This document shows positions 54,976-57,171 of a DNA stretch of 64,000 nucleotides, piece after piece. A program made the translations under genes and the position numbers. Location: the NCBI RefSeq assembly GCF_003044565.1, contig NZ_POXG01000001.1, positions 744,001 to 808,000 on the forward strand, written 5' to 3'. The notes beneath the pieces are model-generated. The model had not been told where the DNA came from. It was given only the letters and a program-made list of their open reading frames with translations, and did no database searches. This stretch comes from Neisseria sicca. GTDB taxonomy: Bacteria; Pseudomonadota; Gammaproteobacteria; Burkholderiales; Neisseriaceae. Position 1 is the stretch's first letter. Every line of letters begins with the position of its first letter.

Positions 54976-57171
54976 TTATTCCGCCTGCTCCGCCAATTCC
55001 AAAGAATCGGGCTGCCATTGGGCTTCGAAAACTTTTAAAACCTGACGCGCGGTTTCGTCGGCTTCGAGCAAATCCTGTGCCTGCTGTCTGCCTTCAAGTT
55101 GGAGGCGTTGGCGGCGCACGGTCGGGGTTTCCCAGCCGGCATCGTCGCGCCACGGTTCGGTTTGCAATTTCAACGGCAGGCCGTAGGCTTCGGCGAGCGT
55201 GTTTTTGATTTTGTCGAGCCGCTCTTTATTCGCGGTCGCGCAGGCTTCGTCGGTCATCGACAGCATCATCAGATGGCTGCCTGCATCGTAGTGCGTCCAT
55301 GCGGCGTGTTGCGCCAGCATTTGCGCGGCACCGAGCTTGCGGGCGAAGTGTCGGACGATTGCCGCCCAGTTTTCAGTGGAAAACTCGGGCAACGGGGCGA
55401 ACTGCGTGCCGTCTTCGTCGTCGCTGTCTTCTTCGGCTTCCGATTCTGCTTCTGCCGTATCGGCAGGAACGGCGTGTTCCCAATCCGGCGGCGGGGGCTT
55501 TTCCGCGCTGTCTGCTACGGGGTAGTCATGCTCGGGCGAACCGTAATCGTAGAAAGACTCTGCGGTATCGTCATGCGGAAACGCTTCTGCTTCTACGGCT
55601 TCAGCGATTGGGGTCGTCTGAATTGGGTCTGTGTTTTCAGGGTTTTCAGACGACGTATCATTCAAGGAAACATCGGTTTCGCTGTTTACTGCTTCGTTAT
55701 CGGAAACTTGATTTTCAGATGACGTTTCGGCTTGAGGGGTCGTCTGAAACGGCGTTTCTGCTTCGTTTGCGGACGGGAGGTTTGTCGCTGCTGCTTCAGA
55801 GGTCGTCTGAACGCTCTCCGCCACCGCTTGCGCAGGCGTGTTCGATACAGTTTCCACATCGCTCGGCGCATCTTCCCAAGGCGGTACGTCGTTGTTTTCT
55901 TGAGTCGGAACCGGTTCGGCAACCTTGTTTTCAGACGACGTTGCAGGCGCAGGGGTCGTCTGAACGGGCGGTTTGGCGGCTTCCGCCTTAGGAAGTTGCA
56001 AGGGCTTTTTTGCGGTATGGACACCCGTTTCGGCAGAATGCAGCTCGGTATTTTCGATATTTCCGCCAACATCGTGCGCATCCGCCGCCAACGGCGCAAA
56101 TGCAAGCATACGCAGCAGGGTCATGACGAAGCCGGCGTATTCGTCAGGTGCAAGGCTCAAATCCTGTTTGCCGTGGATCGCGCATTGATAATAAAGCTGG
56201 ATTTGTTCGCCGCTAAGTGCTTGGCTCAGTTGCAACAGGGTTTCGCGCTCAGGGTCGTCGTTCGCCAAAGCGGAAGGAACTGCCTGTATCAAGGCGAGGC
56301 GTTGCAACAGCATGGCAAGTTCGCTCAACGCGCTGTCAAAGCCGATGGCGCGTGCCGCCATTTCCTGCGCTTTCGCCAGCAGGGCTTCGCCGTCTTGGTT
56401 GACGATACCCGCCAGCAGTTCGTACAGATATTGCTTGTCCACCGCACCTATCATTTGGCGGACGTCTTGTTCGGCAACGCTGCCCGAACCCATGGCGATG
56501 GCTTGGTCGAGCAGGCTCAGGGCATCGCGCATCGAGCCTGCGGCGGCACGGCCCAAGAGTTGCAGGGCGGCAGGTTCGTAGGCGATGTTTTCGTTGTTTA
56601 AAACATGGGCAAGGTGGTCGGCAACCTGTTGCGAAGTCATGTTGCGCAAGACAAATTGCAGGCAGCGGCTCAAAACGGTAATGGGGACTTTGTGCGGATC
56701 GGTGGTCGCGAGAATGAATTTGACGTGTTCGGGCGGCTCTTCCAGCGTTTTCAGCATGGCGTTGAACGCGCTTTTGGAGAGCATATGTACTTCGTCGATG
56801 ATATAGACTTTGTATTTGCCGGCGGTTGGCGCGTATTGGGCGTTTTCCAATACTTCGCGGATGTTGTCGATGCCGGTGTTGGAGGCGGCGTCGATTTCCA
56901 GCAGGTCAACGTAGCGTCCGGTGTCGATTTGCGTACAGCTTTGGCACACGCCGCAAGGCTCGCCGTGTTGCGCGTTTTCGCAGTTGAGGCTTTTCGCCAG
57001 AATACGGGCGATGGTGGTTTTCCCGACCCCGCGCGTACCGGTCAGCAGGTAGGCATGGTGCAGGCGGCCTTCGTCCAGCGCGTTGCGCAAGGCTTTGACG
57101 ACGTGTTCCTGACCGACTAAATCGGCAAAGGTTTTCGGACGCCATTTGCGGGCAAGAACTTGATAAGCCAT
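54976..57171 (-). CDS. dnaX: DNA polymerase III subunits tau and (probably) gamma
   Basis: Tau (731 residues) holds the clamp loader, core polymerases and helicase together. The AAA+ module has TGTRGVGKTTIARIL (Walker A, about 44), a zinc module CENAQHGEPCGVCQSC (about 63-78), IDEVHMLS (Walker B, about 125) and the sensor SRCLQF (about 168). The collar domain ends near 365. A long disordered linker (about 380-590) is built largely from translated DUS (VQTTP, TSSEN), and the C-terminal polymerase-binding domain follows. Codons 387-389 read GCA AAA AAG, as at the E. coli frameshift site; slipping by -1 gives five more residues and a stop, a gamma-like 394-residue product. Confidence 0.95.
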   Translation of the reverse strand: MAYQVLARKWRPKTFADLVGQEHVVKALRNALDEGRLHHAYLLTGTRGVGKTTIARILAKSLNCENAQHGEPCGVCQSCTQIDTGRYVDLLEIDAASNTGIDNIREVLENAQYAPTAGKYKVYIIDEVHMLSKSAFNAMLKTLEEPPEHVKFILATTDPHKVPITVLSRCLQFVLRNMTSQQVADHLAHVLNNENIAYEPAALQLLGRAAAGSMRDALSLLDQAIAMGSGSVAEQDVRQMIGAVDKQYLYELLAGIVNQDGEALLAKAQEMAARAIGFDSALSELAMLLQRLALIQAVPSALANDDPERETLLQLSQALSGEQIQLYYQCAIHGKQDLSLAPDEYAGFVMTLLRMLAFAPLAADAHDVGGNIENTELHSAETGVHTAKKPLQLPKAEAAKPPVQTTPAPATSSENKVAEPVPTQENNDVPPWEDAPSDVETVSNTPAQAVAESVQTTSEAAATNLPSANEAETPFQTTPQAETSSENQVSDNEAVNSETDVSLNDTSSENPENTDPIQTTPIAEAVEAEAFPHDDTAESFYDYGSPEHDYPVADSAEKPPPPDWEHAVPADTAEAESEAEEDSDDEDGTQFAPLPEFSTENWAAIVRHFARKLGAAQMLAQHAAWTHYDAGSHLMMLSMTDEACATANKERLDKIKNTLAEAYGLPLKLQTEPWRDDAGWETPTVRRQRLQLEGRQQAQDLLEADETARQVLKVFEAQWQPDSLELAEQAE
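55975..56013 (-). other. Candidate programmed -1 frameshift site in dnaX
   Basis: On the minus strand the heptamer A AAA AAG occupies 56011-56005 in the correct phase (zero frame GCA AAA AAG). In the -1 frame the next codons are GCC CTT GCA ACT TCC TAA, stopping at 55988. A GGCGG/CCGCC hairpin with a three-base loop follows at 55987-55975, 17 bases after the heptamer. E. coli dnaX uses the same heptamer to make gamma. No clear upstream Shine-Dalgarno enhancer is visible. Confidence 0.6.

What the first reader, a model, noticed from the sequence alone, without database searches (positions are those of the whole stretch)
55975..56013. dnaX carries an E. coli-type A AAA AAG slippery site followed by an immediate -1 stop
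The heptamer lies at codons 387-389 in exactly the phase needed (GCA AAA AAG). A -1 slip gives five residues (ALATS) and TAA, producing a 394-residue product that contains the whole AAA+ and collar region, just like gamma. A small GC hairpin follows. The site lies at the border of the DUS-rich linker, so the linker would be tau-specific.
Basis: partly seen in the sequence, partly recalled or inferred. Interest (0 to 1): 0.72.

Follow-up and report, generated by a model that had tools for sequence, protein, structure and literature searches.

The report
Conserved dnaX frameshift signal in Neisseria
The DNA polymerase clamp-loader gene dnaX of this Neisseria carries a conserved slippery sequence that very probably lets ribosomes make a second, shorter protein; such a signal is already catalogued for Neisseria, but in a related genus the arrangement appears turned round so that the long protein needs the slip.

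Summary
In one genome this is chance-level: 11 in-phase copies in 369 ORFs, 9.5 expected. Relatives decide it: 40 of 45 dnaX genes of the genus keep all seven bases in a variable linker; the codon before varies among five amino acids yet always ends in A; the -1 stop is 1-13 codons on. A Shine-Dalgarno-like stretch is enriched upstream. Five genomes, N. elongata included, lack the site. Recode-2 already lists Neisseria dnaX (PMC3711429), so the finding is sound but the kind is known. Not found in print in my searches: in a related genus (g8) 6 of 6 dnaX genes stop after gamma and encode tau in the -1 frame behind C_CCA_AAA and a hairpin. Other relatives carry A9, A11 or C_CCA_AAG there. No protein evidence was available.

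The parts
54976..57171 (-). dnaX, tau reading frame, 731 aa (AAA+ domain, lid, domain III, linker, domain V)
   Evidence: ORF; Pfam DNA_pol3_delta2, DNAX_ATPase_lid, DNA_pol3_gamma3, and DNA_pol3_tau_5 just below its cut-off (27.4 against 28.8 bits)
56005..56011 (-). slippery heptamer A_AAA_AAG (last base of codon 387, codons 388-389)
   Evidence: present in 40 of 45 dnaX genes of the genus
55988..55990 (-). first -1 frame stop (TAA), five codons after the slip; ends a 394-aa gamma-like product
   Evidence: a -1 stop within 1-13 codons in 40 of 40 site-bearing genes
56016..56031 (-). upstream 16 nt scored for internal Shine-Dalgarno pairing; moderate here (-3.8 kcal/mol, rank 0.15), enriched across the genus
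   Evidence: G at -11 in 39 of 40, G at -12 in 30 of 40
55975..55987 (-). small hairpin GGCGG-AAG-CCGCC, 17 nt after the heptamer; probably not a stimulator
   Evidence: 5' arm changed in G026 and G007
55613..55964 (.). part of the tau-specific linker with six DUS cores GTCGTCTGAA
54499..54834 (-). downstream ORF, 111 aa, resembling YbaB/EbfC (name recalled, not tested); co-transcription is a guess
   Evidence: translation

Best explanation
Programmed -1 ribosomal frameshifting. Ribosomes translating dnaX mRNA reach A_AAA_AAG with tRNA-Lys(UUU) on both lysine codons; a fraction slip back one base, because that tRNA pairs better with AAA than with AAG, helped in many species by an internal Shine-Dalgarno-like stretch about 10 nt upstream. 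Slipped ribosomes stop a few codons later and release gamma (394 residues here: AAA+ domain, lid and domain III). The rest read through to tau (731 residues), which alone carries the DUS-rich linker and the polymerase-binding domain V. Shown: sequence, phase, near stop, nucleotide-level conservation, SD enrichment over the genus, tRNA-Lys(UUU) as the only lysine tRNA type found in this genome. Inferred: that slipping happens, how often, and that gamma enters the clamp loader. In this species the frequency may be lower than in E. coli, since neither stimulator looks strong.
For: 40 of 45 dnaX genes keep A_AAA_AAG. All seven columns are 40 of 40; of 60 flanking columns 52 have a commonest base in 30-75%. 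Codon before: GCA 24, GAA 8, CCA 5, GTA 2, CTA 1; an A-ending codon was expected on average 0.29 of the time, and the codon changes at least 12 times on the tree. AAA AAG in 40 of 40 at the site, 4 of 17 other Lys-Lys pairs in these genes. -1 stop: median 5 codons, mean 6.0 against 20.5 at random linker positions, 0 of 5000 draws as low. Anti-SD pairing upstream: mean -5.9 against -1.8 kcal/mol; 26 of 40 rank 0.10 or better, mean rank 0.085; E. coli dnaX as control -7.2, rank 0.02. In the window's genome the two full-length tRNA-Lys matches are UUU; 8 of 11 matches were examined and none is CUU; a CUU pattern is absent from all 46 genomes of the genus. A_AAA_AAG is one of the three most efficient heptamers in E. 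coli with stimulators (PMC4066793 section 17).
Against: No protein, ribosome-profiling or reporter data for any Neisseria were found. 5 of 45 genes lack the site, so gamma by this route is dispensable in some. The heptamer alone is chance-level in this genome. A -1 stop within 13 codons is common in the linker anyway: 59% of positions. Downstream folding is not generally strong: mean rank 0.37, 11 of 40 at 0.10 or better; but the test is blunt, since E. coli's proven stem-loop ranks only 0.25. The base after the heptamer is also fixed (C in 40 of 40) and Pro follows in 38 of 40, so part of the constraint could act on a Lys-Lys-Pro peptide. Genomes are related; the 0-of-5000 test does not correct for that.
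Confidence: 0.9

Rival explanations
1. Chance heptamer in a conserved Lys-Lys-Pro peptide: the protein motif is what is kept, and any slipping is noise.
For: In-phase A_AAA_AAG is at chance level in this genome (11 in 369 ORFs, 9.5 expected); Pro follows in 38 of the 40 site-bearing genes and C follows the heptamer in 40 of 40.
Against: The base before Lys-Lys is A in 40 of 40 although five amino acids occur there and A-ending codons average 0.29; AAG is fixed as second lysine although it is 14.5% of lysine codons in these genes. The upstream SD enrichment is not explained by the peptide.
Confidence: 0.06
2. RNA polymerase slippage (as in Thermus) makes the short form.
For: Relatives in g9/g12 (2 of 3 genomes) and g6 (2 of 2) carry A9 and A11 at the same place, with stops soon after in both shifted frames; dnaX is known to use either route (PMC5009743 section 21).
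Against: The run here is six A then G, in all 40; slippage sites are described as often eight or more identical bases (PMC3711429 section 9), although the same paper argues for slippage in one dnaX with seven A (section 23). Fixed phase and SD enrichment fit ribosomes.
Confidence: 0.03
3. Gamma arises by proteolysis of tau, or is not made, in this family; the slip only trims tau output.
For: Caulobacter makes gamma by proteolysis (PMC5009743 section 21); many family members have no recognisable site.
Against: Does not explain nucleotide-level conservation, nor the reversed genes of g8, where tau lies in the -1 frame.
Confidence: 0.05

Closest known systems
E. coli dnaX -1 frameshift (gamma/tau)
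   Same: Same heptamer in the same phase, early -1 stop, upstream SD-like stretch (genus-wide), cut after domain III; E. coli fetched as control gives gamma 431 and tau 643 residues.
   Different: Site about 40 codons nearer the start (codon 388 against 429); stop 1-13 codons on instead of one; a strong fold follows in only some species, not in the window. None of 40 loci from other families of the order has A_AAA_AAG in the stretch scanned, so convergence with E. coli is likely, not shown.
Neisseria dnaX entry of Recode-2 and logo of Antonov et al. 2013 (PMC3711429)
   Same: Genus and heptamer already listed as programmed frameshift (passages, section 9 part 1 and section 23 read).
   Different: The parts read give no genus-wide conservation, losses, SD statistics or relatives outside the genus; supplements could not be opened.
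Reversed dnaX genes (tau by frameshift) of Antonov et al. 2013, noted in PMC5009743
   Same: g8 genes stop after gamma and hold tau in the -1 frame.
   Different: Of the 17 described, 12 carry A runs and are read as transcriptional slippage; g8 has no A run but C_CCA_AAA plus a hairpin. Whether the other 5 resemble g8, or any is of this family, was not seen.
Thermus thermophilus dnaX transcriptional slippage at nine A
   Same: A9 in G065 and G082, A11 in G055 and G056, with early stops in both shifted frames.
   Different: Not the window's own site; mechanism untested.

Membership tests
E. coli-type dnaX -1 programmed frameshift | in-phase A_AAA_AAG after domain III of dnaX | tested here: met
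E. coli-type dnaX -1 programmed frameshift | -1 stop shortly after the heptamer | tested here: met
   five codons on, TAA 55988-55990
E. coli-type dnaX -1 programmed frameshift | internal Shine-Dalgarno-like stimulator about 10 nt upstream | tested here: inconclusive
   genus-wide enrichment (26 of 40 rank 0.10 or better); window itself moderate, -3.8 kcal/mol, rank 0.15
E. coli-type dnaX -1 programmed frameshift | stable stem-loop a few nt after the heptamer | tested here: not met
   window: only a 5-bp stem 17 nt away, -8.5 against -19.1 kcal/mol for E. coli; strong folds in 11 of 40, e.g. G035, G024, G037, G036, G042, G029
E. coli-type dnaX -1 programmed frameshift | evolutionary conservation of the heptamer | tested here: met
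   40 of 45
E. coli-type dnaX -1 programmed frameshift | only tRNA-Lys(UUU) to read both lysine codons | tested here: met
   two identical UUU genes, no CUU among 8 of 11 matches examined in G000, no CUU pattern match; a divergent CUU gene would be missed
E. coli-type dnaX -1 programmed frameshift | two DnaX proteins made in cells | not testable with these tools
   no proteome or reporter data
Reversed dnaX (relatives in g8, not the window) | 0-frame stop after gamma and tau C-terminus in the -1 frame at a slippery site | tested here: met
   6 of 6 g8 dnaX genes

The most novel reading that the evidence does not exclude
Within one bacterial family the same gamma/tau decision point has been rebuilt several ways: A_AAA_AAG in Neisseria, A9 in g9/g12, A11 in g6, C_CCA_AAG in G081 and G048, and in g8 a reversed gene in which the tau subunit itself depends on -1 frameshifting at C_CCA_AAA with a hairpin. 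The arrival of a second lysine tRNA, tRNA-Lys(CUU), in the g6/g8 lineage may have made AAG a poor slip codon and forced the change.
Probability: 0.35. Interest if true: 0.65.

Novelty: new member of a known kind. Interest (0 to 1): 0.45.

Why it matters
It gives firm comparative support that most Neisseria make gamma as E. coli does, probably by an independent origin, and it marks species that do not. The family offers a natural experiment: near relatives that appear to have gained, lost, replaced or reversed a frameshift in a core replication gene, with a candidate cause (a second lysine tRNA) that can be tested in E. coli.

Tried and rejected
Hairpin as the main stimulator in the window: set aside on distance and non-conservation. 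The energy tests alone could not have settled it, since E. coli's proven stem-loop passes neither (rank 0.25; z +0.11). DUS as the source of the -1 stop: true in 7 of 40 genes only, and a forward DUS core followed by a reverse one within 80 nt in 3 (G001, G042, G043); a curiosity, not the rule. Shared ancestry with the E. coli signal: 0 of 40 loci fetched from other families of the order have A_AAA_AAG in the stretch scanned, one (G214) has A9. The 40 were picked from the 292 genomes with a hit (9 of those in this family); 29 of them come from the six families listed first by similarity, and one, L228, is cut short by its contig end. tRNA-Lys(CUU) as sole cause of the switch: CUU genes in 7 of 83 genomes (G048, G055, G056, G058, G059, G061, G063), none of the 46 Neisseria; but G062 (80% complete) and G064 (99%), also reversed, gave no CUU gene among the matches examined (one weak match in each was not), G048 has CUU and yet a C_CCA_AAG cassette, and g6 and g8 fall together on the tree (support 98, unresolved inside, with a long g6 branch), so this may be a single event. 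Transcriptional slippage for the window: rejected on run length. A separate C-terminal protein in g8 from an internal start: no start codon in the -1 frame is common to the six near its beginning, and G062 has none in its first 119 codons; not excluded. The tree is a quick one with 33 of 80 inner branches weak; gain and loss were not told apart, and G081 and G048 were scored 'none' on it although they carry C_CCA_AAG. The heptamer scan looked only for AAAAAAN, XXXAAAN and XXXTTTN. G076 (g10) has its frame broken near the end of domain III; taken for an assembly or sequencing error, not followed.

Full report
What is there. dnaX lies on the minus strand at 54976-57171 and encodes 731 residues; Pfam finds the AAA+ domain, lid and domain III up to residue 362 and a match to tau domain V at 600-723 just below its cut-off. 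A_AAA_AAG sits at 56005-56011 in phase; a -1 slip gives ALATS and TAA at 55988-55990, so 394 residues. The DUS form of the window, GTCGTCTGAA, fits the AG-mucDUS dialect, reported as most prevalent in N. mucosa ATCC25996, N. sicca and N. macacae (PMC3630211, passages seen; the letters of the dialect are recalled).

Is it more than chance? From one genome, no. AAAAAAG occurs 31 times in the window, 32 expected. In 369 ORFs of at least 120 codons (overlaps under 60 nt allowed) from 400 kb of the same genome plus the window, in-phase A_AAA_AAG occurs 11 times, dnaX included, against 9.5 (sd 2.5) after synonymous shuffling; 6 of the 11 have a -1 stop within 13 codons.

From relatives, yes. Of 46 genomes of the genus, 45 gave dnaX (G019 gave none). 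40 of 45 have in-phase A_AAA_AAG at codons 382-396. Over the 40, all seven bases are invariant; of 30 columns on either side, 52 of 60 have a commonest base in 30-75%, eight are higher, among them the C just after the heptamer (40 of 40). The preceding codon is GCA 24, GAA 8, CCA 5, GTA 2, CTA 1; from codon usage of the same genes an A-ending codon was expected on average 0.29 of the time, and the codon changes at least 12 times on the tree. AAG is 14.5% of lysine codons in these genes but is fixed as the second lysine; of 17 other Lys-Lys pairs 4 are AAA AAG. The -1 stop is 1-13 codons away, median 5; random linker positions average 20.5 (median of medians 11), 59% of them lie within 13 codons of a -1 stop, and 0 of 5000 draws were as low as the observed mean of 6.0. 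These counts do not correct for relatedness.

Stimulators. Pairing of the 16 nt at -20 to -5 with the 16S rRNA tail averages -5.9 kcal/mol at the site and -1.8 elsewhere in the linker; 26 of 40 genes rank 0.10 or better, mean rank 0.085; E. coli as control -7.2, rank 0.02. G at -11 is found in 39 of 40 and G at -12 in 30 of 40. The window is moderate: -3.8, rank 0.15. Downstream folding has no general signal (mean rank 0.37; 11 of 40 at 0.10 or better), though it is marked in some, such as G035, G024, G037 and G036 (-19.9 to -22.3, rank 0-0.04; their near relative G014 -13.4, rank 0.21). The test is blunt: the proven E. coli stem-loop ranks 0.25 and is no better than its shuffles (z +0.11). 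The window's own hairpin (z +0.83) starts 17 nt after the heptamer and its 5' arm is changed in G026 and G007, which keep the heptamer; on distance and non-conservation I set it aside. In 7 of 40 genes the -1 stop is the TGA inside a DUS core, and in 3 a forward and a reverse DUS core follow within 80 nt.

Losses. G044, G028, G013, G004 and G031 lack the heptamer, and none of them has a Lys-Lys pair at residues 365-420; so these are not synonymous changes of it. G013 is N. elongata ATCC 25295 by identity of 3 kb with a named record.

Lysine tRNA. The window's genome has two identical tRNA-Lys(UUU) genes; of 11 tRNA-Lys-like matches 8 were examined and none is CUU. A CUU anticodon-arm pattern is absent from all 46 genomes of the genus and present in 7 of 83 of the family, where ARAGORN confirms tRNA-Lys(CUU). 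This fits the view in PMC5009743 section 21 (read) that a sole tRNA-Lys makes AAG slippery.

Beyond the genus. 79 of 83 genomes of the family gave dnaX. In g8 (7 genomes, 6 with dnaX) the 0 frame ends at residue 377-381 with GAC CCA AAA TAA (G063: GAC CCA AAA TCA TAA), and the -1 frame is open for 211-381 codons. Its product resembles the window's C-terminus at 20-25% identity (blastp without composition correction, E 7e-13 to 2e-18) and matches tau domain V below Pfam's cut-off in the two tested of six. C_CCA_AAA is invariant in 6 of 6, and a predicted stem-loop follows in all (-14.5 to -25.1 kcal/mol, main stem 4-6 nt after the heptamer, rank 0.07-0.18); for G058 no shuffle of 200 is as stable (z -4.0). 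A T-A pair in some is C-G in G062 by eye. No start codon in the -1 frame is shared by the six near its beginning. Tau thus appears to need the shift. Two of three genomes in g9 and g12 (G065, G082; not G066) have A9, and both g6 genomes A11, with stops 3-12 codons after the run begins in both shifted frames. G081 (g11) and G048 (g3) have C_CCA_AAG with a strong fold after it (rank 0.04 and 0) and -1 stops after 1 and 10 residues, each a single genome. C_CC.A_AA.G gave the highest value in E. coli, 54% with a strong stimulator (PMC4066793, section 17 read). The other members (g2, g4, g5, g7, g10, G049, G066) showed no conserved site among the heptamers scanned; unshared ones occur, as in G050 and G079. 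In 80 named loci of other bacteria, A_AAA_AAG occurs in phase after codon 330 in six (L044, L078, L081, L084, L086, L098), none betaproteobacterial by title.

Comparison with print. Antonov et al. 2013 (PMC3711429; passages, section 9 part 1 and section 23 read) state that Recode-2 holds Neisseria dnaX and include Neisseria in the dnaX logo. They describe 17 reversed dnaX genes from 12 genera; whether any is of this family could not be checked. PMC5009743 section 21 mentions reversal as rarer. In the listings of searches for dnaX with Neisseria, Kingella, 'reversed' and programmed frameshifting I saw no title or abstract reporting Neisseria gamma protein or reversal in this family; the listed papers were mostly not opened, and the library is open-access only.

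Verdict. The finding is right and well supported, and the kind is known. The family-wide variety, above all the reversed g8 gene, is the part worth following.

Noticed in passing
L183-L188 (G062, G064, G058, G059, G063, G061; genus g8): Reversed dnaX: 0 frame stops after gamma, tau in the -1 frame behind invariant C_CCA_AAA plus a predicted stem-loop, 6 of 6 dnaX genes.
   Followed up: yes
L157, L159 (g9 G065, g12 G082), L189, L190 (g6): A9 and A11 runs at the same place in dnaX, with early stops in both shifted frames, as described for Thermus.
   Followed up: partly
L164 (G081), L161 (G048): C_CCA_AAG followed by a strong predicted fold and a -1 stop after 1 or 10 residues; single genomes.
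   Followed up: partly
L269, L270, L293-L299: A second lysine tRNA with CUU anticodon in g6 (2 of 2), 4 of 7 g8 genomes and G048; absent from 46 Neisseria by pattern.
   Followed up: partly
L168 (G076): dnaX frame broken near the end of domain III, the rest in the -1 frame; perhaps an assembly or sequencing error.
   Followed up: no
L078 and L084 (Bartonella), L044 (Aggregatibacter segnis), L048: In-phase A_AAA_AAG at codon 375 in two Bartonella (-1 stop 11 and 1 codons on); ten A then G in Aggregatibacter; A9 and A10 runs in an alphaproteobacterium.
   Followed up: no
L185, L186, L188 linkers: The tau linker of several g8 genes holds repeated segments and DUS-like words (FSGSLK, HCEPEQS) and differs much in length between species.
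   Followed up: no
G019: A single-contig genome of the genus without any dnaX match at the level of its relatives; perhaps a withheld stretch.
   Followed up: no
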